43,688 bases of DNA from Acidobacteriaceae bacterium (GTDB lineage: Bacteria; Acidobacteriota; Terriglobia; Terriglobales; Acidobacteriaceae), in the NCBI GenBank assembly GCA_030041955.1, contig JASIAO010000224.1, positions 1-43,688 of the forward strand, read 5' to 3'. How positions within the stretch are numbered: position 1 is the first letter of the stretch; each line of letters opens with the position of its first letter. The position numbers were made by a program, and so were the translations under genes. Positions 5,598-38,641 of the stretch are shown here, piece after piece. The notes beneath the pieces are model-generated. The model had not been told where the DNA came from, did no database searches, and saw only the letters and a list, made by a program, of their open reading frames with translations.

Positions 5598-5602
5598 TGG
5601 AT

Positions 5603-6925: not shown

Positions 6926-6994
6926 GCGCTCCGAGCCGGCTTGCCCGCGTTGCCCGATCATTTGCCGCAACGCCTCACTGAGTGGCACCAAGTG

Positions 6995-7894: not shown

Positions 7895-8144
7895 GTTGAG
7901 CGCATCACCCCGTTTGGCGGGGGTTACTCTGCCAGTTCTGAAGTTGGCTCTGGCGACGCGACACCAATACGCTGCAAACCTGCGCTCGTCTCGGGCACAA
8001 AACCTGAGGCGGCGAACAAATGCTCGTATGTAGTATACGTGCGCTGAACGCAACCACTGTGAACCGGATGCGCTTCCGTAGTAGCAGGACAGCGGTGACC
8101 TACTCACTTTCGGGGATCTCTCGGAATCAGTTTGACCGCTGAAC

Positions 8145-11247: not shown

Positions 11248-11343
11248 ACCGCTAACCGGTGCAGACAGCTTGGGACCGCGTGGAGAACGGCGGCGAGCGG
11301 TTTATCATTCTGGAAGTAATTCATCTCGCCCAGAGCAGTTCCC

Positions 11344-19226: not shown

Positions 19227-21011
19227 TCAGCACCCGGAAACCGGCGCGGCGGCTTTGGGCTCCTGCGCCAACACCCCCAAACGCGCCAGCGTGCTTTTTG
19301 CCAGGGTCATCGAAAAGACCGTCCGCCCGGGCCTTGACTCGACGAGCGTCACGCTCCCGCCGTGTTCCTGGCTGATATGGTGGGCCAGCGTGAGGCCGAT
19401 GCCCATCCCGCTCTGTTTTCCCTCGCTCACGAACGGCTCAAACAGAGTGGCCCGAATGGATTCATTGACTCCCGGACCGTTGTCGGTGACCAGGATCCTG
19501 ACCCAGTCCTGGTCTTCGGTCAGCGAAACCCTAACCAGGGGAACCCATTCGTGGCGTGCGGCCTGGCAGGCATTCAGCAGCAGGTTGTAGAGAGCGCGCT
19601 CGATCTTGCGGCCGTCGATCCAGGAGGCGGGCGACTCCGGCGCTTCAAAAGCAATCGAAACTCCCAGCGCGTCGGGATGATTGCGCATCATGCTGACCGC
19701 CCTGTCAATCACCAGCGAAATCGACTCCGGACTGATCTGGAGTGCGTGGCCGGTACGGCTGAAAATGAGGAGAGAATCGATGAGGTCGGTCATGCCCTGT
19801 ACGCCGGATCTCACCTCGGCCAGCAGCTCCGCCCTCTCTTCCGGACGCGTGGAATCATAGCCCAGGAACTCGGAATTCGCGTAAACAGCGGCGAGGTAGT
19901 GCCGGAGATCATGGGAAATGGACCGCGCCATGCTGCCAATGGTCGCCAGCCGTTCCGACTGAATCAGTTCCTGCTGGGTGCGCAGGAGTTTTGCCCGCAT
20001 GCGGTCAAACGCCGTACTGAGCTCGCGTATCTCCCGGGTCCCCGTCTTCTGGATCTCGTAGCGGAAGTCGCCTCCGCCCAGCGCACGAGTGCCGGCAACC
20101 AGTTGCTCCAGAGGCCTGGTGATGGTGCCGGAGAGATACAGGGCCAGTACGCCTCCCAGCGCGAACACCACAACGCCGATCGCAGCCAACAGTCGATTCA
20201 GGTCGCGCAGATATCGGCTGGCCTCGTCGTAAGACTTGAGCACCACGAGCCGCACGGGCGCTGTCGCGGGTCCGGAGAGGACGATCGTGGTCGTAAGGTA
20301 ATGCTCACGACCCAGCCATACGTCATGAACGCTTTGTTCCGCATTCGCCGGAATGTTATTCCAGGATTCGGTCCAGGTTTCCAGCGCCTGCCTGCGCTGC
20401 CCCGCAAGGGTTGAGGCCATCACCTTACTACCGTCGGAAAACACGACCTCCGCAGACGCCGCGTGACCAATCTCATCGGCGAGGGTATCGTTCAGTGCAT
20501 AGCCCGTGACGACATAGCCCAGAAGAGTTCCATTGCCCGGCGAGCCGAAATAGACAGGCTTTGCGGCAATCGCATAGAGGCGCCGACCCAGGATGCTGTA
20601 AGGCGCCTGACTCGATCCAACCAGTGGAGGGCAGTCGGCGAGGACCGACGCGCCTGCAGCTCCGCGCAAGTAGCAGGCCACCGACGCGCCGCTGGTATTG
20701 GCCAGCGCCAGCATGTCGGCTCCGGCAATTGTGTAGAACTCCCGCCCGGAATCGCGTATGGTCGCCTGGTCTTCGGTGGTCATGAGCGCCTTCAGGCTGG
20801 GCAGGTCGGCCAACAGCGCGGTTTCACGGCTGAGCATGTGAAGCCGGTACGACTCCATGTCCTGATAGGTGGCGATGCTGCGGTTCAGATCCGATACGAG
20901 GCGCTCGCGAATCTGCTTTTCGAGAACCCGGTGCAGGGCGGCAAGACTCAGAGCAGTGAGGCCGAAGGAAATCGACAGGAGGCAGAGCAGCAGCTTCGTT
21001 CGCATCCGCAT
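19227..21011 (-). CDS. Sensor histidine kinase with periplasmic sensor, HAMP, HisKA and HATPase domains
   Basis: This 594-residue inner-membrane kinase has TM1 at about residues 5-27 and a periplasmic sensor of about 250 residues that looks like a Cache-type domain (conserved FYTIAGADMLALANTSG and LYAIAAKPVYF segments). TM2 lies at about 280-302. A HAMP linker follows, then HisKA with the phospho-acceptor His367 in SISHDLRHYL. The HATPase domain has NLLLNACQAA, VTDNGPGV and GMGIGLTLAHHIS. All catalytic motifs look intact. It should phosphorylate the regulator encoded 30 bp upstream. The ligand is unknown; genes following it encode a porin and a cupredoxin, so an envelope-related small molecule, metal or redox cue is plausible. 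Confidence 0.92.
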   Translation of the reverse strand: MRMRTKLLLCLLSISFGLTALSLAALHRVLEKQIRERLVSDLNRSIATYQDMESYRLHMLSRETALLADLPSLKALMTTEDQATIRDSGREFYTIAGADMLALANTSGASVACYLRGAAGASVLADCPPLVGSSQAPYSILGRRLYAIAAKPVYFGSPGNGTLLGYVVTGYALNDTLADEIGHAASAEVVFSDGSKVMASTLAGQRRQALETWTESWNNIPANAEQSVHDVWLGREHYLTTTIVLSGPATAPVRLVVLKSYDEASRYLRDLNRLLAAIGVVVFALGGVLALYLSGTITRPLEQLVAGTRALGGGDFRYEIQKTGTREIRELSTAFDRMRAKLLRTQQELIQSERLATIGSMARSISHDLRHYLAAVYANSEFLGYDSTRPEERAELLAEVRSGVQGMTDLIDSLLIFSRTGHALQISPESISLVIDRAVSMMRNHPDALGVSIAFEAPESPASWIDGRKIERALYNLLLNACQAARHEWVPLVRVSLTEDQDWVRILVTDNGPGVNESIRATLFEPFVSEGKQSGMGIGLTLAHHISQEHGGSVTLVESRPGRTVFSMTLAKSTLARLGVLAQEPKAAAPVSGC

Positions 21012-23605: not shown

Positions 23606-23635
23606 TTGACAGTGGAAGGTAGCTCCTGCTATGAA
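23606..23635 (+). promoter_or_regulatory. Sigma-70-like promoter of the giant-protein operon
   Basis: A perfect TTGACA (23606-23611) is followed after 18 bp by TATGAA (23630-23635), which matches 4/6 of the -10 consensus. It would give a leader of about 200 bases before the GTG start at 23844. No other good promoter was seen before the five genes ending at 35044. Confidence 0.5.
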
Positions 23636-23843
23636 GTGTGACCACGCTTCCCCCGCTCTCGGGCTCTATTCTCTGCCCACCAGACTCGTTTGCCCGGATG
23701 CGTCGCGCGTGTCCTGTTGCGGGTATCAGCACACCCGATCCGATATCCCGCTTTGCCGAGTGAAGTGTTGAGCATCGCCATCGCCGCGAGGGCCACCGGC
23801 CTTTGCTCTCCGGCGCATGACCCCATCTCATTGGAGGCTGACC

Positions 23844-26800
23844 GTGTCGAACGTCGTATTGGCCATCCAGGGCGGAGTCGCCAGCGGAAGTGAGGCTACT
23901 TTCGATGGTCAGCCGATGCAAAAGGGCATCCATTTGCGCTGGAGCTTTCTGGCGGCTCTGGGCTTTCCGCCGGGGGGGTTCTGGCTGTGCCGGCGAGTCG
24001 CCCAAAAGGGAGAGAAGCAGATTCCTCCGCCACCTGCAGGGTCGGCCACGGTTGCAGGCGCAGACGCTACGAACGCCGTTGCGGCAAGCGCGTCCGGGGA
24101 TACATGGCAGGCCGTGCTGGAGCATCCCTGCCAGAGCGTAACGCTGGCTGGTTGTGCAGCGCCTGGTTGCGATGAGATCGTGATCGAAACCTTTCGGCGC
24201 AATCCTGATGGCGCCTTGGCTGTTGCCGAACGGCGCACGGTCGAGGTCGAAGAGGGGGCGTTCCGAGTCACGGTGCAGGCCACCCAGATTTCCTGCGTGC
24301 GCGTGGTCGGCGCCGGTAGCGTGGACGAGTGCGGCTGTGGACCGATGGAACCGCCTCAGGACTGCGGCTGCACGGGCGGCGGCAATCAGGGCGGCAGCAA
24401 TCCTCCGTGCACGGGTGGACCCGGATGGGGAGACCCCAATCCAAACGGATGGCAATGCTGGGGCGTTCCGTTTACCTTGCCGGTCACTGTCAGGCAATGG
24501 CCCGCGCGCTATTATGGAGCCCCCGATCCGCTGACGACCGCGCCTTCGGTGGTCCAGCAGGACGACATCAAAGAGATGCGCCGGCGGCTGGGGACGCTGA
24601 AGCTGGCCGCGGGACTGACGACCGCCCAGGAGAATGCTGCGTTCGCGCAACTGCGTTCGGAACTCGTGCGGCTGGTGCAGGGATTTCCCACGACACTTTT
24701 GAGCGAAGTGCAGTTACCTGCCGCAACCGCTGGAGCCAACGCTCCGAACCTGAATATCAACGTGATGCAGGAGCTGCTTCTGCTCGCGCTCGATCCCTAT
24801 TTCGCGCGCGTGCTGGGCCTGTACTTCGTCGATGAACAGGCTGCTTCAGGCGTGCAGTACGACTACAGCATCGCGGGCTACTGGGGGGCCACGGCCTGCG
24901 ACAACACGGTGATCTTCCCGGGACTCACGCCGGGGGCGCCACTGGCCCGCGGATCGGCCACCTACAACGGCATCACAATCGCACCCCAGGGCGGAAATAC
25001 TTCACTGTGGCGCTGGACCAAATTCGACAGCAGCGGCAGTTACGATCCGTCGGTCGATTCCTCGTCGCCGTCTTTCGTGCAGAGCGCTGCGGCCTCCATC
25101 ATCGGCGGCCTCAGCGAGGCGGAACAGCCGGACGCGCTGCTGCTGGCTGCCTCACCGGGAACGTGGTGGTTTCCGCCGACGCCGCTGCCGCAGGTTTCCA
25201 TCACGCTCTCCCAGCCCGTGGCGCGCGTCGACGCGCAGGTCTCGGGCAACGGCACACTGCAGGGATTATCGAGCGGCACAATGGTGTCGTCGGCCGGCTT
25301 TAACTCGACGCAACTGAACACGGTGAGCGTCGCTGCGCCGAGCGGCCAACTCATCGACACGATTCAGTTCGTGGGAACGACCGCACCGTCGCCTGCCGGG
25401 TACGTGCTGGCGATCGGGGCATTGACGCTGCATCCGATTTCGCCCGACACCATCGGCACGCTTTATGCGATCATGCCGCCGCCGGTCGCGATCCAGCCGA
25501 TTGCCGCGCCCGGACAGCCGTACACGACCTTCCGCCACCGCCAGGCCGACATCGACACCAGCACGCTGACGCTGGTGCGGCACAGCCTCTATGACGTCGT
25601 GTGGCCGGCGCCGAATCCACCGGCGCCCGTCGGCGATCCCGTAAGCGATCCGCTGCAGCTTCCTCCGCCCACACAACCCATCGGCTTCGTCGCGCAGCGG
25701 CAGGACAGCGGGAAAGCCGGAAGTACGGCGGCTCTTCCTGGCTGGATATCCACCCGGACCGCCCCCACGCCAGCGGGTTCGAATATCACCACGAATAATC
25801 TCTACCGGTTGGTCGATTCGCAGCTTCCCGATCCTGCAGGCGGATGGAGCCATCGCGTCGCGGGCTTCGACATCTTCGGTGCGCTGGGTACGTGGAGCGC
25901 ATGGTCCGATGCGCGCGGAGTGGAGAAGATCGCGGCAGCGCCGACGGCGATGCGCATCGTGCAGTTCGACAATTCGACCGCCGGCGGAGGAGCAGCGAAG
26001 CCCGACGGGTCCGCCTGGATCGGCGGCACGCTCAACCTGATCGTGAACTGGGCGGGCGGCTCTTTCATGATGTATCCGGATCTTGCGACGGCCCGCATCA
26101 CCGTCCAGTCCATCGACGGCAGCGGCAACGTGACAGGAACGCTGGCCACGAAGGACCTGGTAGTGCCTGTACCGTCGATCCAGGAACTTACCGTGGCGTC
26201 GGTCGTCGCTACGCCGTCGGCCGACGGCCTCAGCTACAGCGTGGCCATCCAGACCACGCCGCCGCTGGTGGCGCTGAAGAGCACCGATCCGGGGCAAGTG
26301 CTGATGCTCACTCTTCCCGACGGCTCCTCCGATCGCTATGCCGTGCGTCCCGCGGTGCCTGCCTCCGCAGGGCCGACCGCGACCGCACCGGTCGTGGCCA
26401 CGGTGAACGCGGGCAACTCTGCCCGGATCATTGCCAACACCAGCAAGTACGTGGGCCAGCCCGCCTATCTGCTCTCGGGTTATGGCGTGAATCCCCTGCT
26501 GTCGGTTCCGCTGGACATCCCGGTAACGCAGCAAACGGCCCGCGCGCAGGTTTCGGTTACAGGCTCGACAAGAAATCCATTCCTTGCCGGTGAACAGATC
26601 GTCGACCCCAATGGCGTGAATCCGAACAAGCCCGAGCCGTCTTCGGTCGAGCTCATCTTCAACGGACCGCAGCGGCTCCAGCCTCCCCCGCCGCCTCAAC
26701 CGCCCACGACGCCGATCCCGGTCCACCAGGTCAACCACCTCTACTACAATCCGGCAGATGCGAATGGGAACGCCGATCAGACGCTTCCATTTACCACACC

Positions 26801-28121
26801 GGCCGTGACCGGAGTATCGGGATACGTGCTGCAGCGCGAACCGGTGCGCTCGCTCTCGCTGGCCGACGTGAAGCGGCGGAACAACCTGCCGACACCCAAC
26901 CTGGCCGATCCGAACCCGGTGATGGTGGACAGCGGAACACCGCGCGCCGATCTTGCCGCGTGGATCTCCTCCCTCACCGGATGGCTTAGCTGCTACAACG
27001 CCGTGCAGGGGTACAACGCGGCCCATGCCGTACCGCCGTACAGCTATACGCCGCTGACTACCGCAAACGCGCTCCAGGATACCAACGCGCAGCGTGCGTT
27101 CATCGAGCATTTCTATGGGGGCCTCCTGGACGACGAGCTGTGCACTCTGGCAGATGTTCCGGGCAACGCCATTGGTTACGTTCGCGTCCACTCGCAGCCG
27201 ATCGCTCCGGGAACCACGATCGTCGACACCGTGGACGGCAGCGGCTACGGGCGCACCGTCTATCGGCTCGCCTCGGTGAACCAGGCGGGCAGCATGAGCG
27301 CATCGCCGACGAACACCATCGGTCCCTGGTACACGACCATCGTCACGCCGCCTCGTCCTCCGGTGCTCTACAAGCTGCAGCCGACGGAGACCGCCATCAT
27401 TGTGGCCTGGGCGCTTGATGCCAGTCCGGACGTTGCCGCTTACATCGTCTACCGCGCCGCCACTGTGCAGGACCTCGCCGACCTTCGCTACTTCGGCGCC
27501 GACCCCACGCACCCCAGCCCGTCGAGCGATCTGCCAACGACAACGCGTAATACCCAAAGCTATCCACCGCTCAGATTCGTTCAGGGCTCGGGGGCGAACA
27601 TCGATTCGCGCATTGTCGGTTTTGTGCCCGATCCGCGGCTATGCGCTCGCGATTACAAGGGCAGCGACATGGGCGAGGTGATCCTGCCAACGGGACCGGC
27701 GCCAGATGCGATCAACGGCGTTTACCGGCTGAGCGATTACGTCCAGGCGCTGGGGCCGACCGGGCAACTGGCGTTCAACTACTGGACACCGCCAGCCACA
27801 GGCGGAATCGCGCAGGTGGTCACGACTTCGGACACGCAGTCGCGGCTGACAGGCCTGCGCATCGGCCTGGGCCGCGGTATTCCCGTTGTCGTGGTCGCCA
27901 CGTGGGCCGGGAAAGTCCAGGCTCTGGGCGTGGTGCCCAATCGGCGCGCGGCCTTCATCGACAGCGCGCCGGTCAGCGATCCCAACGCAATCGCCGGGGC
28001 TTCGGCGCCCGGCACGGACGCGCCTAATGCGTACGCAGTGGTCTCCGTGGACATATTCGGCAATTACTCAGCGTCATCGTCGGTGTTTGCGACGCAGATG
28101 CTGATGCCGGTCACGGCCTAG
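23844..28121 (+). CDS. Giant beta-rich protein with FN3-like domains, 1425 aa, function unknown
   Basis: The GTG at 23844 is preferred because GGAGG lies 6 bases upstream; an ATG at 23817 would add nine residues. There is no signal peptide or clear membrane segment. The N-terminus (MQKGIHLRWSFLAALGFPPGG) leads into an FN3-like fold. A Cys-rich, Gly-rich segment follows at about residues 163-206 (six Cys). A helical section (about 235-320) lies between beta regions. There is another FN3-like unit around WSHRVAGFDIFGALGTWSAWS, a polyproline linker near 947-958 and a clear FN3 domain near 1171-1250 (RPPVLYKLQPTETAIIVAW). The family is unknown to me beyond a remembered type of giant bacterial protein that often pairs with a second giant protein like the one at 29203. 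It probably binds or scaffolds; no catalytic motif is seen. Confidence 0.75.
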   Translation: MSNVVLAIQGGVASGSEATFDGQPMQKGIHLRWSFLAALGFPPGGFWLCRRVAQKGEKQIPPPPAGSATVAGADATNAVAASASGDTWQAVLEHPCQSVTLAGCAAPGCDEIVIETFRRNPDGALAVAERRTVEVEEGAFRVTVQATQISCVRVVGAGSVDECGCGPMEPPQDCGCTGGGNQGGSNPPCTGGPGWGDPNPNGWQCWGVPFTLPVTVRQWPARYYGAPDPLTTAPSVVQQDDIKEMRRRLGTLKLAAGLTTAQENAAFAQLRSELVRLVQGFPTTLLSEVQLPAATAGANAPNLNINVMQELLLLALDPYFARVLGLYFVDEQAASGVQYDYSIAGYWGATACDNTVIFPGLTPGAPLARGSATYNGITIAPQGGNTSLWRWTKFDSSGSYDPSVDSSSPSFVQSAAASIIGGLSEAEQPDALLLAASPGTWWFPPTPLPQVSITLSQPVARVDAQVSGNGTLQGLSSGTMVSSAGFNSTQLNTVSVAAPSGQLIDTIQFVGTTAPSPAGYVLAIGALTLHPISPDTIGTLYAIMPPPVAIQPIAAPGQPYTTFRHRQADIDTSTLTLVRHSLYDVVWPAPNPPAPVGDPVSDPLQLPPPTQPIGFVAQRQDSGKAGSTAALPGWISTRTAPTPAGSNITTNNLYRLVDSQLPDPAGGWSHRVAGFDIFGALGTWSAWSDARGVEKIAAAPTAMRIVQFDNSTAGGGAAKPDGSAWIGGTLNLIVNWAGGSFMMYPDLATARITVQSIDGSGNVTGTLATKDLVVPVPSIQELTVASVVATPSADGLSYSVAIQTTPPLVALKSTDPGQVLMLTLPDGSSDRYAVRPAVPASAGPTATAPVVATVNAGNSARIIANTSKYVGQPAYLLSGYGVNPLLSVPLDIPVTQQTARAQVSVTGSTRNPFLAGEQIVDPNGVNPNKPEPSSVELIFNGPQRLQPPPPPQPPTTPIPVHQVNHLYYNPADANGNADQTLPFTTPAVTGVSGYVLQREPVRSLSLADVKRRNNLPTPNLADPNPVMVDSGTPRADLAAWISSLTGWLSCYNAVQGYNAAHAVPPYSYTPLTTANALQDTNAQRAFIEHFYGGLLDDELCTLADVPGNAIGYVRVHSQPIAPGTTIVDTVDGSGYGRTVYRLASVNQAGSMSASPTNTIGPWYTTIVTPPRPPVLYKLQPTETAIIVAWALDASPDVAAYIVYRAATVQDLADLRYFGADPTHPSPSSDLPTTTRNTQSYPPLRFVQGSGANIDSRIVGFVPDPRLCARDYKGSDMGEVILPTGPAPDAINGVYRLSDYVQALGPTGQLAFNYWTPPATGGIAQVVTTSDTQSRLTGLRIGLGRGIPVVVVATWAGKVQALGVVPNRRAAFIDSAPVSDPNAIAGASAPGTDAPNAYAVVSVDIFGNYSASSSVFATQMLMPVTA

Positions 28122-28153
28122 TCACCCGGAACCAGTGAGAGAAAGGAACCAAG

Positions 28154-28624
28154 ATGGCAGACGATCCGATCAATGATGTGATTACGGCGCTGACCAGCAG
28201 CAATCTCATCCAGAACAGCGGCGGCACCATGGTAGCTGGGTCGCTGTACAACACCATCCAGACGCTGGTGAAGGCCATATTCGGGGTGTCGGCGCTGGCG
28301 CCGGTGAGCACCGACATCAAGACTGCGCTTACGACGGCCGCATCAACGCTTACCACGATCGGGACCGCGTTGCAGTCGAGCGGCGGCAGCCTGAGCGACA
28401 TCGGCGGGGTCATGGCGGGGCTGCAAAACGCGATGTCGGCGCTGCAGTCGCTGGCTCCGTCAGCAGCCGCGCCGGTGCTGAATACAGCCAGCAGCCTTTT
28501 CCAGACCATTCAGGAGCAACTTAACGCGCTTGCCGGTGAGGTGGGAAAGACGATCACCGACGCGGCAACGGAGCTAACCCAGCTCTCGCAAATCCTGACG
28601 CTGATAGTGGCTCTGTTCCCGTAG
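28154..28624 (+). CDS. Small helical protein, 156 aa, related to the next gene product
   Basis: A good AAGGA site precedes ATG 28154, 32 bases after the first giant gene. The protein is almost entirely amphipathic helix, rich in Ala, Leu, Ser and Thr, without Cys and without a signal peptide. Segments such as IQTLVKAIFGVSALAPVSTD and LTTAASTLTTIGTALQSSGG suggest a helical bundle. The C-terminal half aligns by eye with the protein at 28685: both have PSAA, then L..(S/N)xLF, L.ALA/LLAQVA, and end in a helix closing with LFP. Possible roles include a structural subunit, a chaperone for the giant proteins or a membrane-active protein. None can be chosen from sequence. Confidence 0.72.
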   Translation: MADDPINDVITALTSSNLIQNSGGTMVAGSLYNTIQTLVKAIFGVSALAPVSTDIKTALTTAASTLTTIGTALQSSGGSLSDIGGVMAGLQNAMSALQSLAPSAAAPVLNTASSLFQTIQEQLNALAGEVGKTITDAATELTQLSQILTLIVALFP

Positions 28625-28684
28625 TCGGAGGCTGGCCGGTCCGCGCTTCGCCGATCCACGATCCCTCCCAGGAAAGGTTCCGTT

Positions 28685-29188
28685 ATGCCGCCTCCCGATC
28701 CACTCGCTCCCGTCATTCAGGCTTTGTCGTATCTGATTGTGCCGAACCCCACAGTCGCCGACCCTGTCGGGACACAGACGCCGAACGACTGGACCGGCGG
28801 GGCGAATACGCCGACCGACGGCCCGTTCTTTACGCCTGCGCAGGTGCTGCTGAGTCTGATCCTCGGCGCTTCAGCTGATCTGACGACGCTGGGCAATGGC
28901 ATCAATTCCACGCTGACTGGCGTGGGGTCAGCGCTTGCGAGTCTCGCCAATGAAATCGGCGATCTGGAATCCACGGCAGGAGCAGCGACCGTCCTCAGCG
29001 CCGTGCAGACCGTGCTCCAGCTGGTGCAGGGATTTGTTCCTCCCTCCGCCGCGGGAACGCTGCAGTCGGTGAACACGCTGTTTGGGCAATTGAACACGCT
29101 GCTGGCGCAGGTCGCTCTTGAAGCCAATGAGATGGCGGCGATCTCGCAGCAACTCACGGCCACGGCCCCGCTGTTTCCCGCCGCCTGA
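28685..29188 (+). CDS. Small helical protein, 167 aa, paralogue-like partner of the preceding protein
   Basis: AGGAAAGG lies a few bases before ATG 28685. Residues 1-55 form a proline-rich, extended leader (NDWTGGANTPTDGPFF). The rest is amphipathic helix: VLLSLILGASADLTTLGNGI, VLQLVQGFVPPSAAGTLQSV, and a closing helix ending in LFPAA. There is no signal peptide and no Cys. Its C-terminal half resembles the protein at 28154, which suggests an old duplication. Both genes lie between the two giant genes in the same direction with small gaps (60 and 14 bp), so the products are likely made together and may form a hetero-oligomer. No known family is recognised. Confidence 0.72.
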   Translation: MPPPDPLAPVIQALSYLIVPNPTVADPVGTQTPNDWTGGANTPTDGPFFTPAQVLLSLILGASADLTTLGNGINSTLTGVGSALASLANEIGDLESTAGAATVLSAVQTVLQLVQGFVPPSAAGTLQSVNTLFGQLNTLLAQVALEANEMAAISQQLTATAPLFPAA

Positions 29189-29202
29189 AAGGATTGACGC
29201 AC

Positions 29203-32200
29203 ATGTCCACATTGCTTTCACCCACGTCTCTACTCGGATCGCTGGGGCTGCCGATCCTGCAGGACGCTCTGGACGCGGCGTTCGGGTCGGGCGTAGTCAC
29301 GATCAGCGCCGACAGCTCCGGAGTCAGCGCGGGGCTGACGCTCTCCGGCGGTATATCGGTCAACATCGACGACCTTGTGGTGAATGCACAGGGAATCTCG
29401 GGACACTTCTCTATCGGCGGAATCAGCGACACCAACCCGCTGAGCGCGACGATCGCGGGATTTACGGTTGGCCTTACCGCCTTCGACATCACGCTGGCGC
29501 AAAGCGGCTTGGCAGCAAGCAACATCGCTGCGCAACTCACCATTCCGTTCTTCACCGACAGCTCAGGCAATCCGCAGGTGATTGACATCGAGGTGAGCAC
29601 CAACGCCGCGGGGAATCTAACCATCTCCGTTGCGGCCGCCCCGAGTCAGTCAACGACGCCCGATGGTCTGGTTCAGCTCACGTACGACCTCGCCGGCGTG
29701 GGCAGCGTGGAAATTGACGTGGATTCGCTCGAGATCACCGAGGTCAACAGCGTGTGGACGCTGGTGATCTCCGGCAACCTGATTATCGAGACGGAGGGGT
29801 TGAACTGGCCGAGCATCGAGCTCAAGGGGCTGGGCATCGACAGCAAGGGCCATATCTCGCTGGAGGGCGGATGGATCGATCTGCCCAACCAAATGGCGCT
29901 GGATTTTTACGGCTTCCACGTCGGCCTGCAGAAACTCGGCTTCGGCACGGATTCCAGTGGCGACAAGTGGATCGGCTTCAACGGCGACATCAATCTCGTG
30001 GAAGGTCTCACGCTGGGCGGCAGCGTGCGCGGACTGCAGATCAACATCACCCACCCCGGCGTCACGTTTGAAGGCGTCAGCATCGACTTCGCCATCCCCG
30101 ACGTTCTGAGCATTACCGGCCAGGTCGATCACTTTCAGGTCAACAACGCGATGGGTCCGAATGATCTGGTCAACGTCGGACTGCCCGGATACATCTTCGA
30201 CTTCATCAACCCGGTGGGTCCGGTCCAGCCCCCGAGCCCGGGCAAGCAAGTCAACGTCTTTGCCGGAGCCGTGAAAGTCGTCATTGACCCTGGCGACATG
30301 GACCTTGAAGTCGACGCCAATTTCATCGTAGGCACGTTTGGCGGTCAGTCGGTCTTCTTCCTCGACGTGGATGCCGAGCTGCCGGTGGGCATTCCGTTGT
30401 TCCTCGATGTGGCTTTGTACGGACTGCAGGGTTTGGTGGCGACGGGGCTGGAGCCGCAACCGGAGCCGCAAAACACGTGGTGGGAGTGGTTCAAGTATCC
30501 GGCCGTGGGCGAGCCGCCCGAAGGACAGATAGGCAGCGGCACCGTGCCCCCCGAGGGGTCGAGCGGGGTCGTGAACACTTCCGGCACACCCCCGCCGAAT
30601 TACTCGGCGACGGATTTCTATAAGTGGCTGTGGCCGAAACAGGGAGCATTTGCAATCGGCGCGGGTGCCACCATTGGCACCGAAGCGGACGATGGCTATA
30701 CCGTGTCGGCGGCGATCATGTTCGTGCTGATGCTGCCAGGTCCGATCATCTCTTTCATCGGCAAAGCGAACATTCTTTCCCCGCGCATTGGCGGCGCTTC
30801 GGACGACGCTGATTTCGACGCAATGGCTACGTACGACGGCACCTCGCAGACCTTCGATCTCACCGTCGATGCCCAGTACTCCATCCCCATCGTGCTCGAT
30901 ATCACCGCGACGGCGGAACTCTTTGTCGGCGAGGGAACGTGGTATTTCGCGCTTGGCAAGCCGCCGCATGAGCAGCGCGTCTCGGCGCGCATCTTCGATA
31001 TTTTCGAGGCCGACGCGTATTTCGTGGTGAGCGACACCGGTCTGGTCACCGGCACGTGGACCGGCTACAAGAACTCGTGGAGCTTCGGACCTCTCTCGGC
31101 CAGCGTCGATGCGTATCTGGCCACGCTGGCGGCGATCCAGTGGGCGCCTCTGCAGATTGGCGGGGGGATTGAGCTGTACGGAAACCTGCAACTCAGCGCG
31201 TTCGGCATCCACGTCGGCCTGACCGCCGATGCGCTGCTGGAAGGCTGCGCGCCCAATCCTTTCTGGGTACATGGCGAATTGAGCGTGCAGTTGAATTTGC
31301 CGTGGCCTCTGCCCAGTCCGGGCGCGACCATCTCGCTCACATGGGGCGGCGACGATGGCTCGGTGCCGCCCGCGCCGCTGGCGCTGAGCCGTGTGAACGC
31401 CACGCTGATTGATCACTGCGACTCGGCCAGCAAGCCGGCCAGCGATCATTACGTGCTGCTCTCGCACGCCTCGCCCGCGGTCGATTCCGACCAGACCGTC
31501 ACCCTGGATCCCGTCACTCCGGGGATCCTGGGCCTGACCTCGTCCACAGGGCGCACGCTGACCTCGCCGCCCGATCTGAACCCGGGCAGCGCCAGCTCGG
31601 CGCAGTTTGCTGCTGTGCTGCCGCAGGATGCGCACTTCACACTGAACTTCTCGCAGGGAACTGTCGACAACACGGGAGCATTCAACGGTGCGCTGCCCTG
31701 GGGCAGCTTCCCCACGCTACCACCCGTGCCTTCGCTGCCTCCGGCCTCTCTCATTGGGGCCGACGACATGTCGAATATCAACCCGAACCAGCCGCCGGTG
31801 CAGTTCGTCATTCGGCATACGCTTCTCGAGGTCGCTCTGTACATGTACGATTCCGGCACCAGCGCCTGGAGCCTCGTTTGCTCGACGGCAACGCCCACAG
31901 TCAGCGATCCCACCCCTGGTGTGACGCAGTTGAGCGGCGTGTGGCTCTCGGCCAGTGCCTCGAATGCGAATCCGCGCCAGGCGATGACGCAACTCAAGGT
32001 TGTTCCCTGGAGTTTGTTGCCGGGCGTCGACGCGACAGCGCAGTGGAGCAGCACATCCGAGATCGACCCGATCACCAATCCATTCGAGGACCAGAATCTG
32101 ACGTTCGATGTCGCGGCCGGCTTTGGCACCCCAGCCATCGAGGGATTCCAGCCAATTCCAGCAGGGTTGTCGTTCCCCACCGTCGGCAAGGTCGAGAATC

Positions 32201-34356
32201 CCCTGGTCACCATCTCCTTCACGCAGCCCAGCGTGCTCACGTCGATTACTGCGCTTGTATACTTCGCCAGCGGCGAGATCCAGATCGCCGAAACTCCGCA
32301 AATCCTGGTGAACGGAGTCGCGCTGACGCCGCAGAGTTCCTGGCAGGATCAAAGCTCAGGGGCCTGGACCCTCACGTTTCCTGACACCGGCCCGTCCATC
32401 CAGGAATTCAGCATCCCGGTGGGCGGAATCGCGCTGATCCTCTACTCCATCGACTACTCCACGGCGCCCGTGCCTATGGCCATACTGCCGCAGGCGCCGG
32501 CCTTTTACTCTCTCGCGACGGCGACCATGATCGAGGCCGAGCGAGTTGGCGCGTCTTCCTTTCAGGCTGTGCCGTATGGCGACCCCATCGTGGAGTTCGC
32601 CTATTTTCAAACCGCGTCCGGACCCGGCACGGTGCAGGGAACGGCGACGACGGTTCCCGTCCCGGTTACTCCGGCGCCTTACCCCCCATTGCAGCAGCAG
32701 TGTCCTTCCGTTGCGCAACCGAACTCGGCCTCGCCGCTCGCGGGCGCTCTGACCGATCTGCACACATATACGCAGTGGTCCTGGCCGCTCGATGGCGCCA
32801 CGACGGCTTACTACGGTTACGACGTGAATGTCGAATTCGTGGAGAGCTACGTGAACATGCTCTACGCAGCTTTCTCAAGAAAGCTTCCTGAGCTGTCGCT
32901 GCATTTCCGGTGCGTGGACCGGAATAATAACCACGTCCTCCTCGTTCCGAACGCTATTCACGTGCCATCCATTCCGCAGCAGAGCGCGCTCGTCGCCTCC
33001 GCTATGACCCTGCCTTTGCCGTCATACATTCCCCAGTCGCCGGTTACCCTCAAGCCATGGCTCATCGGCGAACAGCAGCAGGCGCTGTTGCAGAAGCGCG
33101 CGGCCCAGGCAGTGCATGCCAATATCTTCCAGGAGTCGGCGCCGGTCTTCACGCGGCCCTCGCTGTCCACCCTCATTAACGAGGCCAATCTGGGCGGCGG
33201 CCGCAACAACGCGTTGTCGATCCAGCAGATCGATCCTGGACTCGCCGGTGCAATTCTTCACGGGATCGAGGAATACAACGCCGGCCAGCAGGACGAACAG
33301 TTGTGGTTCAGGCCATTCATGCCTTCCACACGATACACGCTCGACGTAGTGGCCGGCCCCCTCTACGTCAACTCCGATTTCGCAGCAGATGCCGCGTCGA
33401 TCCCGGGTGCGGTCTCCCTCGGCTCAGTGCTCGATGCTACCGACGCCATCGGCCTGCTGGCTGCGCTCGATAACTACTTCGGCTATGAAGATTCATTGAC
33501 GACGCTCGAGCGAGTGCAGTTCACCACGTCGCGCTACGCGAATTTCACCGCACACCTGGCGAACGCGGCGAGCCAGCTTGCGGGCGCTGCCGGCGCAACG
33601 CCGATTCGCAACTATGTCGCTGCCGAGGATCCCATTACCTGGCTGACTGGACAAACGACGCAGCTTAACACCTGGGTCAGTGCTGGTGTGCAGTACCTGG
33701 ACGACCATCAGAAACTTGCCTCTCTGGTGGCCTCGTTCGATCCTATGGCCGACGATCTGTGGTCTGGCAGCGCACCCGCAGTCACCAACGGCGCATCCGC
33801 GCTGGTGAGCCAGCGGCAGGCGGTGGCCGCTGACTGGACTGCGTTCTCGCAGGCGATCAATGCGCTTTACAACGGCATGATCGCGGCCCTCGGCCAGCCG
33901 CAGATGGCTGCAAACACTGCACCCATTGCTGTGCCCGATACCGAAATCAGCTTCTTCACGGATTCGTCAGGATTGTGGATCGAAGCGATCCTGATCCAGA
34001 GCCCGGAACCGCTGCCCTGGCAGCGCCTCTGGCGCTGGGTTCGCCTCGCCGGTGCCGGCAACGCCCAGATCGCAATTCTGCCGATCTGGAGCGACGACGG
34101 GACCACGGGCCTGCTGGTGCCTCTCGAAAGTGGGCGGGGAATCTACAGCCTGAGCATGACGTTCCAGGGAAACCTTGGCGCTGAGGCTCCGTGCATCACG
34201 CTGAACGCCGATGCGGTGACGGAACCGCTTGTCGTGGGATCGATCAGAATGGGTCCGCCGATTCGCCATCTCCCACGGGAGGGCCAGGCGATCCAGGAGC
34301 TGCAGCGCCCCGTTCTCTCCCTCGCGGACAAGATTCAGTCCATCCTCGGCGGATAA
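29203..34356 (+). CDS. Giant beta-rich protein, 1717 aa, function unknown
   Basis: ATG 29203 follows GAAAGGA at good spacing; a TTG at 29194 is less likely. There is no signal peptide. The N-terminal 330 residues are a run of short beta strands with repeated hydrophobic/Gly pattern (LTLGGSVRGLQINITHPGV), like an elongated beta sheet or AsmA-like solenoid. Near 424 is a Trp-rich segment (NTWWEWFKYP) and near 503-525 a hydrophobic stretch (IMFVLMLPGPIISFIGKANI). The region from there to about 705, ending in LNLPWPLPSPGATISLTWGG, recalls very large bacterial and fungal proteins of the DUF6603 type; this is memory, not a search. The C-terminal thousand residues mix beta domains with helices. The gene sits in the five-gene operon and is probably the main partner of the 1425-residue protein. 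Confidence 0.78.
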   Translation: MSTLLSPTSLLGSLGLPILQDALDAAFGSGVVTISADSSGVSAGLTLSGGISVNIDDLVVNAQGISGHFSIGGISDTNPLSATIAGFTVGLTAFDITLAQSGLAASNIAAQLTIPFFTDSSGNPQVIDIEVSTNAAGNLTISVAAAPSQSTTPDGLVQLTYDLAGVGSVEIDVDSLEITEVNSVWTLVISGNLIIETEGLNWPSIELKGLGIDSKGHISLEGGWIDLPNQMALDFYGFHVGLQKLGFGTDSSGDKWIGFNGDINLVEGLTLGGSVRGLQINITHPGVTFEGVSIDFAIPDVLSITGQVDHFQVNNAMGPNDLVNVGLPGYIFDFINPVGPVQPPSPGKQVNVFAGAVKVVIDPGDMDLEVDANFIVGTFGGQSVFFLDVDAELPVGIPLFLDVALYGLQGLVATGLEPQPEPQNTWWEWFKYPAVGEPPEGQIGSGTVPPEGSSGVVNTSGTPPPNYSATDFYKWLWPKQGAFAIGAGATIGTEADDGYTVSAAIMFVLMLPGPIISFIGKANILSPRIGGASDDADFDAMATYDGTSQTFDLTVDAQYSIPIVLDITATAELFVGEGTWYFALGKPPHEQRVSARIFDIFEADAYFVVSDTGLVTGTWTGYKNSWSFGPLSASVDAYLATLAAIQWAPLQIGGGIELYGNLQLSAFGIHVGLTADALLEGCAPNPFWVHGELSVQLNLPWPLPSPGATISLTWGGDDGSVPPAPLALSRVNATLIDHCDSASKPASDHYVLLSHASPAVDSDQTVTLDPVTPGILGLTSSTGRTLTSPPDLNPGSASSAQFAAVLPQDAHFTLNFSQGTVDNTGAFNGALPWGSFPTLPPVPSLPPASLIGADDMSNINPNQPPVQFVIRHTLLEVALYMYDSGTSAWSLVCSTATPTVSDPTPGVTQLSGVWLSASASNANPRQAMTQLKVVPWSLLPGVDATAQWSSTSEIDPITNPFEDQNLTFDVAAGFGTPAIEGFQPIPAGLSFPTVGKVENPLVTISFTQPSVLTSITALVYFASGEIQIAETPQILVNGVALTPQSSWQDQSSGAWTLTFPDTGPSIQEFSIPVGGIALILYSIDYSTAPVPMAILPQAPAFYSLATATMIEAERVGASSFQAVPYGDPIVEFAYFQTASGPGTVQGTATTVPVPVTPAPYPPLQQQCPSVAQPNSASPLAGALTDLHTYTQWSWPLDGATTAYYGYDVNVEFVESYVNMLYAAFSRKLPELSLHFRCVDRNNNHVLLVPNAIHVPSIPQQSALVASAMTLPLPSYIPQSPVTLKPWLIGEQQQALLQKRAAQAVHANIFQESAPVFTRPSLSTLINEANLGGGRNNALSIQQIDPGLAGAILHGIEEYNAGQQDEQLWFRPFMPSTRYTLDVVAGPLYVNSDFAADAASIPGAVSLGSVLDATDAIGLLAALDNYFGYEDSLTTLERVQFTTSRYANFTAHLANAASQLAGAAGATPIRNYVAAEDPITWLTGQTTQLNTWVSAGVQYLDDHQKLASLVASFDPMADDLWSGSAPAVTNGASALVSQRQAVAADWTAFSQAINALYNGMIAALGQPQMAANTAPIAVPDTEISFFTDSSGLWIEAILIQSPEPLPWQRLWRWVRLAGAGNAQIAILPIWSDDGTTGLLVPLESGRGIYSLSMTFQGNLGAEAPCITLNADAVTEPLVVGSIRMGPPIRHLPREGQAIQELQRPVLSLADKIQSILGG

Positions 34357-34390
34357 CCTGCGCAGAGGCGTGAGGCTCACGAAAAAGAAA

Positions 34391-35044
34391 ATGACCTCAG
34401 ACATCCCCCAAAATGTTGGCCTCGAACTGCCGACGCAACTCGTCCATGGGGCTTTCTTCCAGCGTTCCCTCGTCTCCGAATCGTCTGCGCAAAACTGCTG
34501 GTTCGTCTACTTTCCGGACGGCGTGATCGATCCACCACAATACGTAATACCCTGTCACCGGTTGCCCACGCAGGAGACGCTCTACTGGCTGCAGGAACCG
34601 ACCAATCTGCCGAGAGCGGTGAATGGTTTCGTTCTTGCGAGTGCCAGCGATCTGGCCGGATTCGAACTGGGCCCGGGCGCGCTGAATCCTTACGAGCAGT
34701 TCAATCTCATCAAACCTGTTGCTGTCATTGACGACGGCGTATACGTCTTCCAGGGCCGCTTCGATCTCTCGATCGCCTCTGGCCTGAATCGTGCCGAAAA
34801 AGCCAACTTGCTGCTCCAGCGTCACCAACCGGAGGCTGCGCTCTCTGAAGCCAGGCAGGCAGTCGCGCTGGCCCCGGACCTGGTTCCTCCAGAGGCCACC
34901 CTTGGCGACATCCTGTTGGCTCTTGGGCGCACCTCGGAAGCGCGAGCTGCCTACCAGCGCGCCCTGTATCTGGCGGAAACGGTCGATCCGGCTCTGCAGA
35001 CCGATTGGGTTCAGACGTTGCGGGCGAAGCTGGCGCCACGGTGA
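34391..35044 (+). CDS. TPR-containing protein, 217 aa
   Basis: ATG 34391 lies 35 bases after the giant gene; the ribosome-binding site is weak. Residues 1-130 form a mixed alpha/beta region (CWFVYFPDGVIDPPQYVIPC; LYWLQEPTNLPRAVNGFVLA) that includes LGPGALNPYEQFNLIKPVAV and DDGVYVFQGRF. Residues about 135-215 hold two TPR-like helix pairs (AEKANLLLQRHQPEAALSEA; LGDILLALGRTSEARAAYQR). There is no signal peptide or membrane segment. The layout reminds me of the soluble tail of acidobacterial membrane glycosyltransferases (PMT/GT39 type), so it may derive from such a domain. As last gene of the operon it could be an adaptor or assembly factor for the giant proteins. Confidence 0.7.
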   Translation: MTSDIPQNVGLELPTQLVHGAFFQRSLVSESSAQNCWFVYFPDGVIDPPQYVIPCHRLPTQETLYWLQEPTNLPRAVNGFVLASASDLAGFELGPGALNPYEQFNLIKPVAVIDDGVYVFQGRFDLSIASGLNRAEKANLLLQRHQPEAALSEARQAVALAPDLVPPEATLGDILLALGRTSEARAAYQRALYLAETVDPALQTDWVQTLRAKLAPR

Positions 35045-35747: not shown

Positions 35748-36578
35748 ATGAACAAGCAACCGCTCGGAGCTCTTTGTGAGTTTTCTTTCAAAACCGGCAT
35801 CAAGGTCAGACAAATCTGCATTCCTATTTTCGTGGGGATGATCGCAGCTGCGCATTCTTCCGCGCAGCAGCCCTGCGCGCAGGGTATTCGCATCGACGGA
35901 ATCGTCATCGACCCGACGGGAGCGGTCATTTCTGGAGCGAGCATGCACACGTCCAGTGGAGCGACGGTCCTGACCGATGCAACCGGGCACTATGGGTTCG
36001 CGTGTGAGGCGGGGACTTCCACCATGATCACCGCGGATGCTGCGGGATTCGCCAAAGCCATGGGGCGTGCGCATGCGCGCGCGGGCGGCGTCGCGCATGT
36101 CAATCTCAAGCTTTCTGTGGCGTCGGTAGAGACGAGTGTGGAGGTCAACGCAAACGCCGGCGGAGTTGACAGCGGCGACTCAGCAGGTTCGATTGTCCTC
36201 GGGCCAGAAGCGATCGAACGGCTCTCCGACGATCCGGACGATCTTCTTCGCGAGTTGCAGACGATGGCTGCCGGCGGAGGCGGCGCTCCCGGAGGGGCGA
36301 TCATTTCCGTCGACGGTTTTCAGAATGGAAGCCCACTGCCTCCCAAAGGCTCTATCGCCGAGATTCGCATCAATCCAGACCCGTTTTCGGCCCAATACGC
36401 AACCAGCAACCAGGAACCTTCAATCGCCGGCAGGAGTCCGGTACTGGAAACCTGCGCAAGCCTGTCCCAACGCCCGCCTCTTGCCACAATCCCGCCGAGC
36501 TTTCCGACGGGCCAATTCGCACGCCGCAACCTTGCCCGTTCCCTGCAGTCTCGGTTGTTCAATAATCAAAATCGATGA
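35748..36578 (+). pseudogene. Truncated Oar-like TonB-dependent receptor (N-terminal fragment)
   Basis: This 276-residue frame starts like a large acidobacterial Oar-type outer-membrane protein. It has a signal region (QICIPIFVGMIAAAHSSAQQ) and a carboxypeptidase-regulatory domain (IRIDGIVIDPTGAVISGASM; TDATGHYGFACEAG). A plug-like start follows (SIVLGPEAIERLSDDPDDLL; GGAIISVDGFQNGSPLPPKG; IAEIRINPDPFSAQYATSNQ). Full-length members go on for about 800 more residues as a beta-barrel. Here the pattern breaks near residue 225 and ends after about 50 unrelated residues rich in Arg, Pro and Ser. It cannot form a transporter. The break looks like a deletion; whether the short protein is still made is unknown. 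Its stop overlaps the start of the GH127 gene (ATGA). Confidence 0.65.
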
Positions 36579-38641
36579 GAAACCACAGCAGCGCCCTCGG
36601 TTTTACTCGTCGCAGCTTTCTTCGCGGACTCGGCACCGCTGTGGCCGCCTCCACTACTTCCCATTGGTTCGCCGGATCCGCTCAAGCCGCCACCATGTCC
36701 GTCCCCCGCCGTCCTCAGGCCGTCGTGAAAGACCGGGCGCCGCTCTTCGCTGGAAACATGTACTTCCTCCCGCTGGGATCGATTCGTCCTCGCGGATGGC
36801 TCCTCGACCAGCTACGCATCCAGGCCGACGGACTCACCGGCCACCTCGGCGAAATCTGGCCGGATGTGGGGCCAAATTCCGGGTGGCTCGGAGGAACCGG
36901 AGAAAGCTGGGAGCGCGGCCCCTATTATTTCGACGGCATGCTTCCCTTGGCGTGGCTGCTCGACGATGCGCGCCTGCAGGCCCGCGCAAAACAATTTGCC
37001 GACTGGACCCTCGATCATCCCTGGCCGAACGGAATGATCGGCCCGAGAAGCAATGATGACTGGTGGCCGCGCATCGTCATGCTGAAGGCGCTCGCCCAAT
37101 ATCAGGAGCTCACCGGCGACCAGCGGGTGGTTCCACTGATGGATCGCTATTGCCGATACCAGATGGCGACGCTGCCCACGCGTCCTCTGCGCGACTGGGG
37201 AAAATTCCGCTGGCAGGACGAAGTCCTTACCGTAGTCTGGCTCTACAACCGAACCGGCTCTCCTTATCTACTCGACCTCGCGAAGCTCCTCCAGCTACAG
37301 GGATACAACTGGATTGCCGAGTTCGCCGACTTCCCTTACAAACAGAAAGTTACGGCCGCTTGGCTGAAGCTCGCCGAAGGTCAGGGTCTGAGCGATCTTG
37401 CGCTCGCCACCCACGGCGTCAACAACGGGCAAGGGGTGAAAACTGGTGCTGTCTGGTCCCTTGTTTCCGCATCCGCCGATGATCGCCGTGCTTCCGAGCA
37501 CATGCTGGCCGAGTTGACGAAATATCATGGCCTGCCCAACGGAATGTTCTCGTGCGATGAGCATCTCGCGGGCCGGGATCCTTCGCAGGGCTCCGAGCTA
37601 TGCACGGTGGTTGAGACGATGTTCTCGCTCGAGCGCGCCCTCGCCGTCACAGGTTCCCCCGTCCTCGGCGACCGTCTGGAAAAGCTCGCGTTTAATGCCC
37701 TCCCTGGCACGCTCACCGACGATATGTGGGCGCACCAGTACAACCAGGAATCGAATCAGGTCGAGTGCAGCCTCCACCGGAAACCCTGGGTAACCGACGG
37801 GCCCGAGTCAAACCTCTTCGGCCTTGCTCCGAACTTCGGCTGCTGCACGGCGAACTATCACCAGGGCTGGCCAAAGTTTGCTAACAGCTTATGGATGCTC
37901 AGCGGCGCGCCGGATCACGACCACGGGGATGGCCTGGTTGCAGCGGCCTATGCGCCCTGCGAAGTAACGGCCTTGGTTCGCGGTACTGCGGTTCACGTAA
38001 TCGAGGAAACCGAATATCCGTTCCGCGGCACCGTAGCGCTGACTGTTTCGCCGGATAAGGCGGTTTTCTTCCCGCTGGGACTACGCATTCCAGATTGGGC
38101 GCCGGGGGCGACCATCCGGGTGAACGGCGAGCGCCAGGCGGATCCGGCCGCGGGAAGCTTTGCCCGGATTGAGCGGACGTGGGAAGCCGGCGACCGGGTT
38201 GAGCTCGAATTTCCAATGCGTTTGCGGACATCGCGTTGGTTCCACGACGCAGTGGCGGTCGAGCGGGGACCCCTGGTCTTTTCGCTCGAGGTCGGCGAGG
38301 ACTGGGAGAAGCTCAAGAACAATGGGCTAAGGTCCGCCGATTGGCAGGTGTTTCCAACGGGGCCCTGGAACTATGCGCTGGCGGTTGACCCTGCACATCC
38401 GGAGGCGAGTCTGCTGGTAACCGAGACGCCAGTCGGAGCTGGACCCTTTACAAAGCCGGGCATCGGAGTTCGAATTGAAGCGCGGGGCGGGCAGGTGAAC
38501 GCCTGGCGGGCAGAGGACGGAGCGGCGAACCCCCTGCCGGAAAGTCCGCTGGCGAGTGAGGAGCCGGAGGAAAGATTGACTCTGTTGCCGTATGCTGCGG
38601 CGAAGCTGCGAATCACAGCGTTCCCGGTGCTGAAAAGTTAA
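36575..38641 (+). CDS. GH127-family (DUF1680) beta-L-arabinofuranosidase-like enzyme, Tat-exported
   Basis: This 688-residue protein has a twin-arginine signal (TRRSFLRG at residues 11-18, then a hydrophobic stretch and AQA). The body is the DUF1680/GH127 (alpha/alpha)6 domain. Glu341 and Cys343 (GSELCTVVE) and the Cys423-Cys424 pair in GCCTANYHQGWPKF correspond to the Glu-x-Cys and Cys-Cys zinc-site residues of Bifidobacterium HypBA1. This supports a working enzyme that removes beta-L-arabinofuranosyl units from plant glycans or glycoproteins, probably in the periplasm. The C-terminal part is beta-rich. Its start overlaps the truncated receptor's stop. The three genes converging on it encode further glycosidases. 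Confidence 0.9.
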   Translation: MRNHSSALGFTRRSFLRGLGTAVAASTTSHWFAGSAQAATMSVPRRPQAVVKDRAPLFAGNMYFLPLGSIRPRGWLLDQLRIQADGLTGHLGEIWPDVGPNSGWLGGTGESWERGPYYFDGMLPLAWLLDDARLQARAKQFADWTLDHPWPNGMIGPRSNDDWWPRIVMLKALAQYQELTGDQRVVPLMDRYCRYQMATLPTRPLRDWGKFRWQDEVLTVVWLYNRTGSPYLLDLAKLLQLQGYNWIAEFADFPYKQKVTAAWLKLAEGQGLSDLALATHGVNNGQGVKTGAVWSLVSASADDRRASEHMLAELTKYHGLPNGMFSCDEHLAGRDPSQGSELCTVVETMFSLERALAVTGSPVLGDRLEKLAFNALPGTLTDDMWAHQYNQESNQVECSLHRKPWVTDGPESNLFGLAPNFGCCTANYHQGWPKFANSLWMLSGAPDHDHGDGLVAAAYAPCEVTALVRGTAVHVIEETEYPFRGTVALTVSPDKAVFFPLGLRIPDWAPGATIRVNGERQADPAAGSFARIERTWEAGDRVELEFPMRLRTSRWFHDAVAVERGPLVFSLEVGEDWEKLKNNGLRSADWQVFPTGPWNYALAVDPAHPEASLLVTETPVGAGPFTKPGIGVRIEARGGQVNAWRAEDGAANPLPESPLASEEPEERLTLLPYAAAKLRITAFPVLKS

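What the first reader, a model, noticed from the sequence alone, without database searches (positions are those of the whole stretch)
23606..35044. Five-gene operon of two giant proteins, twin helical proteins and a TPR protein
Over 11 kb is spent on proteins of 1425 and 1717 residues plus two small related helical proteins and a TPR protein, all in one direction with gaps of 14-60 bp behind one TTGACA promoter. None has a signal peptide, and no sheath, tube, baseplate, polymerase or nuclease motif is visible, so it is not an obvious injection system, prophage or defence cassette. The pairing of an FN3-containing giant with a DUF6603-like giant is something I recall from other bacteria, without known function. 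A cytosolic or non-classically released assembly is a working guess only.
Basis: partly seen in the sequence, partly recalled or inferred. Interest (0 to 1): 0.8.

Follow-up and report, generated by a model that had tools for sequence, protein, structure and literature searches.

The report
Two-giant chassis with swappable middle gene
Two giant proteins always encoded together, with a different small protein or enzyme gene slotted between them in different microbes, form an undescribed gene system found in unrelated soil bacteria and in salt-loving archaea, and it looks like a carrier for interchangeable cargo, although nobody has tested what it does.

Summary
The genes are real, but the unit has four, not five. 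P1 (1425 aa, FN3 type), two paralogous low-charge helical proteins (156 and 167 aa) and P4 (1717 aa) sit on one strand with gaps of 32, 60 and 14 bp, and all four are under purifying selection. The fifth ORF, the "TPR protein", is the truncated C-terminal tail of a membrane glycosyltransferase, and homology of the unit stops before it.

P4 is a diverged DUF6603 protein. P1 and P4 homologues occur together in Acidobacteriota, Dormiibacterota, Burkholderiaceae, Actinomycetota, Chloroflexota, Paenibacillus and haloarchaea, but in few genomes. Their trees match (r = 0.97, 18 pairs).

Between them lies a middle gene that is not conserved: helical protein(s) in the window's clade, phospholipase D-like enzymes in seven distinct loci, SGNH-motif proteins in two, others elsewhere. 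Two loci whose giants are 53-54% identical carry PLD in one and an SGNH-motif protein in the other.

I read this as a two-giant chassis with a swappable cargo slot, probably acting outside the cell on membranes or envelopes. The organisation is shown; the function is inferred (PLD enzymes, lectin repeats, signal peptides on a distant pair, amphipathic strands). No library names P1-P4, and no searched paper mentions DUF6603.

The parts
23606..23635 (+). Promoter-like element: TTGACA at 23606-23611, weak -10 candidate TATGAA at 23630-23635
   Evidence: TTGACA kept in the two relatives L005 and L006 within an otherwise diverged upstream region; a consensus scan does not call it
23844..28121 (+). 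P1, giant 1, 1425 aa: FN3-type giant with the N-terminal motif GIHLRW..LGFPPGGFWLCRR
   Evidence: GTG start behind GGAGG; dN/dS 0.15; homologues next to the DUF6603-type giant in the related loci
28154..28624 (+). P2, helical low-charge protein, 156 aa (middle-slot protein 1)
   Evidence: dN/dS 0.34; homologue in every helical-clade locus; low-confidence all-helical model
28685..29188 (+). P3, helical low-charge protein, 167 aa, paralogue of P2 (middle-slot protein 2)
   Evidence: dN/dS 0.20; P2/P3 family alignment; two copies only in the window's genus
29203..34356 (+). P4, giant 2, 1717 aa, diverged DUF6603-type protein: core about residues 1-835 made of about 30 long amphipathic strands; clade-specific C-terminal half
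   Evidence: BLAST to DUF6603-positive giants at 1.6e-96 and 6e-87; PF20248 above cutoff in L033 and L035; model; strand amphipathicity
34391..35044 (+). P5, 217 aa, remnant C-terminal tail (with TPR) of a membrane glycosyltransferase; not part of the system
   Evidence: 63% identical over 185 aa to the tail of a 709-aa glycosyltransferase; remaining N-terminal part absent from the window; no homologue in the other loci of the unit

Best explanation
P1 and P4 are the two halves of an obligate large chassis, and the gene between them encodes the cargo or effector, which has been exchanged during evolution. Elsewhere the cargo includes PLD-like enzymes, SGNH-motif proteins and perhaps other envelope hydrolases; here it is two small, nearly uncharged all-helical proteins. 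SHOWN: co-inheritance of P1 and P4 with fixed order and tight spacing, and replacement of the middle gene by non-homologous families. INFERRED: the complex is released, binds a target surface (glycans, through C-terminal lectin domains in some homologues), and presents the middle protein to a membrane or envelope. P4's very long amphipathic beta core may form the membrane- or lipid-contacting part, and the helical pair may act on or insert into membranes.
For: Giant1-middle-giant2 on one strand in 21 tabulated loci (including the window; a few are near-identical strains), with gaps mostly -4 to 130 bp. Giants' trees mirror each other, r = 0.966 for 18 pairs. L035 and L036: giants 54% and 53% identical, middle genes PLD and SGNH-motif without homology (E 0.23). 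PLD identity above Pfam cutoffs and matched to eukaryotic PLD1/PLD2. SGNH triad motifs GDSW, GGND, DE.HL conserved between two 28-33% identical proteins. Lectin-type repeats at the C-terminus of DUF6603 giants. Predicted Sec signals on both members of the distant Bacteroidota pair. P4 core: 31 strands, mean 12.6 residues, face difference 2.47 against 1.39 +/- 0.18 in shuffles. Patchy distribution, different flanks, plasmid location in Mycetohabitans.
Against: No immunity gene was recognised, no release route is visible, and proteins of the window's clade lack signal peptides. PLD and SGNH enzymes also have housekeeping roles, so a toxin reading is not forced. One locus (L068) has giants with no middle gene, and other loci have a different gene order. 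The helical proteins' action is unknown and their model is poor (pLDDT 54). The P4 model is weak (mean pLDDT 56) and its best fold matches have TM-scores under 0.2.
Confidence: 0.4

Rival explanations
1. Lipid-handling machine: P4's giant amphipathic beta structure is a lipid-binding groove, belt or barrel, and the middle protein is a lipid-modifying (PLD, SGNH) or lipid-binding (helical) partner, so the unit stores, moves or remodels lipids rather than attacking other cells.
For: About 30 long strongly amphipathic strands; weak Foldseek similarity to beta-barrels and apolipoprotein B; PLD relatives are phospholipases; helical proteins are small and low in charge.
Against: Lectin repeats and a patchy, partly plasmid-borne distribution fit surface targeting or conflict better than lipid housekeeping; one locus has a possible transglycosylase (weak); P4 model confidence is low and similar folds can arise from a general beta-meander shape.
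Confidence: 0.25
2. Extracellular adhesin or matrix complex: FN3 and lectin-bearing giants bind polysaccharide outside the cell and carry accessory hydrolases.
For: FN3 domains in a homologue of giant 1; ConA-like lectin repeats in giants 2; soil and mire organisms; glycoside hydrolases near the unit in the window.
Against: No signal peptide in the triad loci checked; PLD and the helical proteins are not polysaccharide enzymes; the window's P4 has no recognised lectin; flanking genes differ between the closest loci of the unit.
Confidence: 0.15
3. Cytosolic protein assembly or compartment built of the giants, with the middle protein as its content.
For: No signal peptides in the window's clade; very acidic proteins (P2, P3 and P4 about pI 4.1); few cysteines in P4's core.
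Against: The distant Bacteroidota pair is predicted secreted; lectin domains make little sense inside the cell; no shell or filament family is hit.
Confidence: 0.1

Closest known systems
DUF6603 (Pfam PF20248), family of unknown function
   Same: P4's core is homologous to giants that pass the DUF6603 cutoff; same position next to an FN3-type giant
   Different: P4 itself is below detection by the model, lacks about 170-220 N-terminal residues of its distant relatives and has a clade-specific C-terminal half; the family has no known function
Polymorphic toxin systems (PMC3482391)
   Same: Conserved carrier part combined with exchangeable effector-like parts; patchy distribution
   Different: The variable part is a separate gene in the middle, not a C-terminal domain; no immunity gene recognised; carriers belong to no known trafficking family
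Tc (ABC) toxins and extracellular contractile injection systems
   Same: Multi-gene loci with very large proteins and a cargo (from general knowledge, not tested)
   Different: No hit of the window's proteins to toxin, sheath, tube or baseplate families above cutoff
AsmA/TamB and bridge-like lipid transfer proteins
   Same: Large beta structure with a hydrophobic face
   Different: No sequence match, no membrane anchor seen, free-standing giant with a swappable partner gene

Membership tests
DUF6603 (PF20248) | Pfam model match above curated cutoff in the window protein | tested here: not met
   P4 has no Pfam match at E <= 1 and none in its genome (a search in which the model rang nowhere)
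DUF6603 (PF20248) | Homology to proteins that do pass the cutoff | tested here: met
   PF20248 in L033 (1.6e-8) and L035 (1.5e-7), above cutoff; P4 matches them at 1.6e-96 and 6e-87
Polymorphic toxin system | Variable toxin domain at the C-terminus of one conserved polypeptide | tested here: not met
   Variable element is a separate middle gene
Polymorphic toxin system | Immunity gene next to the toxin | tested here: inconclusive
   The middle gene is followed directly by giant 2; an unrecognised immunity protein or a non-self target cannot be excluded
Contractile injection system or phage tail | Sheath, tube, baseplate or ATPase genes | tested here: not met
   No hits for P1 or P4 of note in Pfam, NCBIfam or PHROGs; only weak tape-measure-like helical matches for P2 (E 7e-4) and P3 (0.11)
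Anti-phage defence system | Match to PADLOC models | tested here: not met
   No hit for P1-P5; only generic PLD (DrmC) similarity for other loci's PLD genes
PLD superfamily (middle gene of other loci) | PLD-like domain with HxKx4D motif | tested here: met
   PF13091 between 1e-16 and 1e-9 in L017, L033, L035 and L038; second motif complete, first is HxK without the D
SGNH hydrolase (middle gene of L036, L022) | Blocks GDS, GxND and DxxH in order | tested here: inconclusive
   GDSW, GGND and DE.HL conserved, but no Pfam or PDB sequence hit

The most novel reading that the evidence does not exclude
An undescribed delivery or targeting device shared by bacteria and archaea: a two-giant chassis (FN3 giant plus amphipathic-beta DUF6603 giant) whose central gene slot is repeatedly reloaded with different membrane- or envelope-active proteins.
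Probability: 0.35. Interest if true: 0.9.

Novelty: categorically new. Interest (0 to 1): 0.72.

Why it matters
A gene system of about 10-15 kb, preserved with the same layout across several bacterial phyla and haloarchaea, has no described function, and its main domain is not mentioned in any of 5.39 million searched papers. The exchange of a PLD-like for an SGNH-type gene between chassis 53-54% identical makes the cargo idea directly testable. If right, it adds a kind of modular protein machine; if the lipid reading is right, it adds a kind of bacterial lipid carrier. Either result would give function to DUF6603.

Tried and rejected
(1) Known families for the window's proteins: Pfam, NCBIfam, PHROGs, PADLOC and PDB sequences gave nothing above cutoff except TPR in P5. 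(2) PF20248 search in the own genome rang nowhere, not even in controls, so it says nothing. (3) TPR protein as a fifth component: rejected. (4) Phage origin: P4 has no match in the phage collection; viral structure matches are poor (best TM-scores about 0.1). (5) Structure of P2: low confidence, so no fold search was done. (6) Structure of P4 1-1000: usable mainly for secondary structure; VIA-align rows are porins (Z up to 14.3, but rmsd about 13 A over residues 293-703), read as a barrel- or meander-like arrangement, not as outer-membrane protein membership, since homologues occur in Paenibacillus and haloarchaea. (7) PDB search with the DUF6603 core profile: no hit; helical family profile: only weak chance-like coiled-coil and Dps matches. 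(8) Lytic transglycosylase for L034: below Pfam cutoff, weak MltB matches. (9) L032, L039 and L019 middle or third genes: unidentified. (10) A shared docking domain among middle proteins: no homology between the PLD, SGNH and other types. (11) Literature: no paper for DUF6603/PF20248 and none for other term sets tried.

Full report
1. The observation. The window carries P1 (23844-28121, 1425 aa, GTG behind GGAGG), P2 (28154-28624, 156 aa), P3 (28685-29188, 167 aa), P4 (29203-34356, 1717 aa) and a further ORF P5 (34391-35044, 217 aa), all on +. Gaps are 32, 60 and 14 bp, then 34 bp to P5. Against a close relative, dN/dS is 0.15, 0.34, 0.20 and 0.20 for P1-P4, so the two small ORFs are true genes. 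TTGACA at 23606 is conserved in two relatives within a diverged upstream stretch; the -10 is weak and a consensus scan does not call it.

2. P5 is not a member. Its only close homologues found are the C-terminal tails of large membrane glycosyltransferases: 63% identity over 185 aa to residues 521-705 of a 709-aa protein in the same genus, 47-48% to a 683-aa protein in another genome. (That these are glycosyltransferases is my reading of their sequence, not a family hit.) The rest of that gene is not in the window. DNA similarity to the two nearest copies of the unit (80%) covers 23696-34325 and ends before P5; no flanking similarity was found in the stretches compared. P5 has no homologue in any of the other loci of the unit that were searched. 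So the unit is four genes, and it lies next to a truncated gene.

3. Relatives. No library names P1-P4 above its cutoffs. Among 150 relatives (plus the window's own genome) P4 was found in four genomes in all, and in a phylum sample in 6 of 396. Two same-genus genomes have the full P1-P2-P3-P4 unit (80-85% protein identity for the giants), and a third genome of another genus has P1, one helical protein and P4. A further genome (L020) holds a decayed copy: P1 fragments, and P4 residues 1-104 joined to about 1283-1691 with a stop. A scan of 84,980 species found 16 loci, and further searches added others: 1 of 296 in the phylum of L030, 4 of 301 Chloroflexota, 1 of 248 in the order of Paenibacillus, 3 of 299 in the family of Paraburkholderia, 7 of 148 in the class of L035, 3 of 79 in a haloarchaeal order, and 13 of 61 in the family of L039, most of these last being weak matches. 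These samples were drawn around carriers, so they overstate frequency. Mycetohabitans carries the unit on plasmids among insertion elements.

4. P4 is a diverged DUF6603 protein. Its relatives in Paenibacillus (L033) and Thermoanaerobaculum (L035) pass the PF20248 cutoff (1.6e-8 and 1.5e-7), and P4 matches them at 1.6e-96 and 6e-87. A Mycetohabitans relative is annotated as DUF6603. Several of these giants end in ConA-lectin-like repeats (PF06439: five stretches in L033, three in L035, one just below cutoff in L017), and one contains a beta-propeller stretch. P1's relatives share the N-terminal GIHLRW...FP..GF.L.RR motif, a LDPYFARVLGLYFVD..YDY motif and FN3-like stretches; Pfam calls fn3 in the distant homologue L091.

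5. The central finding: the middle slot. In 21 tabulated loci the order is giant 1 - middle - giant 2 on one strand, usually with gaps of -4 to 130 bp, several with overlapping starts and stops. The middle gene differs: (a) helical 156-176 aa proteins, one copy or two, in the window's clade (Acidobacteriota, Dormiibacterota, Paraburkholderia, Acidimicrobiaceae); (b) PLD-like proteins in Mycetohabitans (two species), Paenibacillus, L035, two haloarchaea and, as a tandem pair, a Chloroflexota genome; (c) proteins with the SGNH triad motifs in L036 and L022; (d) a possible transglycosylase in L034, below cutoff; (e) unidentified proteins in L032 and L039. L035 and L036 are the sharpest case: giants 2 are 54% identical over 2,696 aligned positions, giants 1 are 53%, and their middle genes are PLD and SGNH-type with no homology (E 0.23). 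The two giants' trees agree (r = 0.966, 18 pairs). The helical pair P2/P3 and the PLD pair of L066 are both tandem pairs in the same slot. Exceptions: L068 has the giants without a middle gene, and other loci have the order X-giant 2-giant 1 or giant 2-giant 1.

6. Structure hints. A model of P4 residues 1-1000 (mean pLDDT 56, core blocks mostly 60-80) is a long antiparallel beta meander; 31 strands of 8 or more residues average 12.6 residues, with one face more hydrophobic than the other (2.47 against 1.39 +/- 0.18 in shuffles). Fold matches are large beta-barrels and, weakly, apolipoprotein B, with low TM-scores. This fits a large barrel, groove or lipid-facing sheet, but does not prove one; any beta sandwich would also show some alternation. 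P2 is modelled as helices with low confidence; the family is 4-9% charged with conserved positions DP(I/L), LQ..L, P and Q.L.

7. Where it acts. Window-clade proteins have no recognisable signal peptide. The distant Bacteroidota pair (L091, L092), recognised by collinear profile matches to both giants, has typical Sec-like signals on both members. With the lectin repeats this favours action outside the cell; how the window's proteins would leave is unknown.

8. Explanation. I commit to a chassis-and-cargo model: two co-evolving giants carry or present a swappable middle protein to a membrane or envelope (0.40). The conserved pair and the swapping are shown; release, targeting and membrane action are inferred. 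Main rival: a lipid-handling machine (0.25). Against the model: no immunity gene recognised, no release route, weak structural models.

9. Novelty. DUF6603 is a known domain of unknown function, but the system (pair plus swappable slot, bacteria and archaea) matches no described kind that I could test: polymorphic toxins put the variable part at the C-terminus of one protein next to an immunity gene (PMC3482391), which is not the arrangement here. No searched paper mentions DUF6603 (open-licence papers only, so an unheld paper may exist).

Noticed in passing
window 34391-35044: Truncated C-terminal tail of a membrane glycosyltransferase directly behind the operon; its N-terminal part is missing from the window, so the right border of the unit marks a rearrangement.
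   Followed up: yes
L020 (G494:C2:1070001-1089000), 7985-12051: Decayed copy of the unit in a related genus: P1 in fragments, helical gene in pieces, P4 with residues 1-104 joined to about 1283-1691 and an internal stop.
   Followed up: partly
L091 5978-9010 and 3941-5977; L092 7313-12396: Bacteroidota have a compact version (about 1010 and 680 aa) of the two giants, adjacent, both with predicted Sec signal peptides.
   Followed up: partly
L089 14377-18729, L090 4228-8349, L067 9238-12696, L071 10210-13605: In another arrangement a third large protein (1130-1450 aa, no Pfam family above cutoff) stands upstream of the DUF6603 giant; in L089, L090 and L071 the FN3-type giant follows downstream.
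   Followed up: no
L066 10154-13749: Tandem PLD pair (33% identical) in the middle slot of a Chloroflexota locus, parallel to the tandem helical pair of the window.
   Followed up: partly
L022 4598-7337: The SGNH-type middle gene appears split over two frames (ORFs 4598-5557 and 5454-7337), a frameshift or assembly error.
   Followed up: no
window 23844-28121, P1 residues about 95-180: A cluster of cysteines conserved in the four closest P1 proteins, including CGCG...CGC; possible metal site or disulfides.
   Followed up: no
window 36575-38641, 40572-42164, 2874-5597, 19227-21011: Neighbouring genes by Pfam: GH127-like, MGH1-like glycoside hydrolase, SLBB/Poly_export polysaccharide export protein, histidine kinase; the flanks compared in the closest loci of the unit show no DNA similarity to these.
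   Followed up: partly
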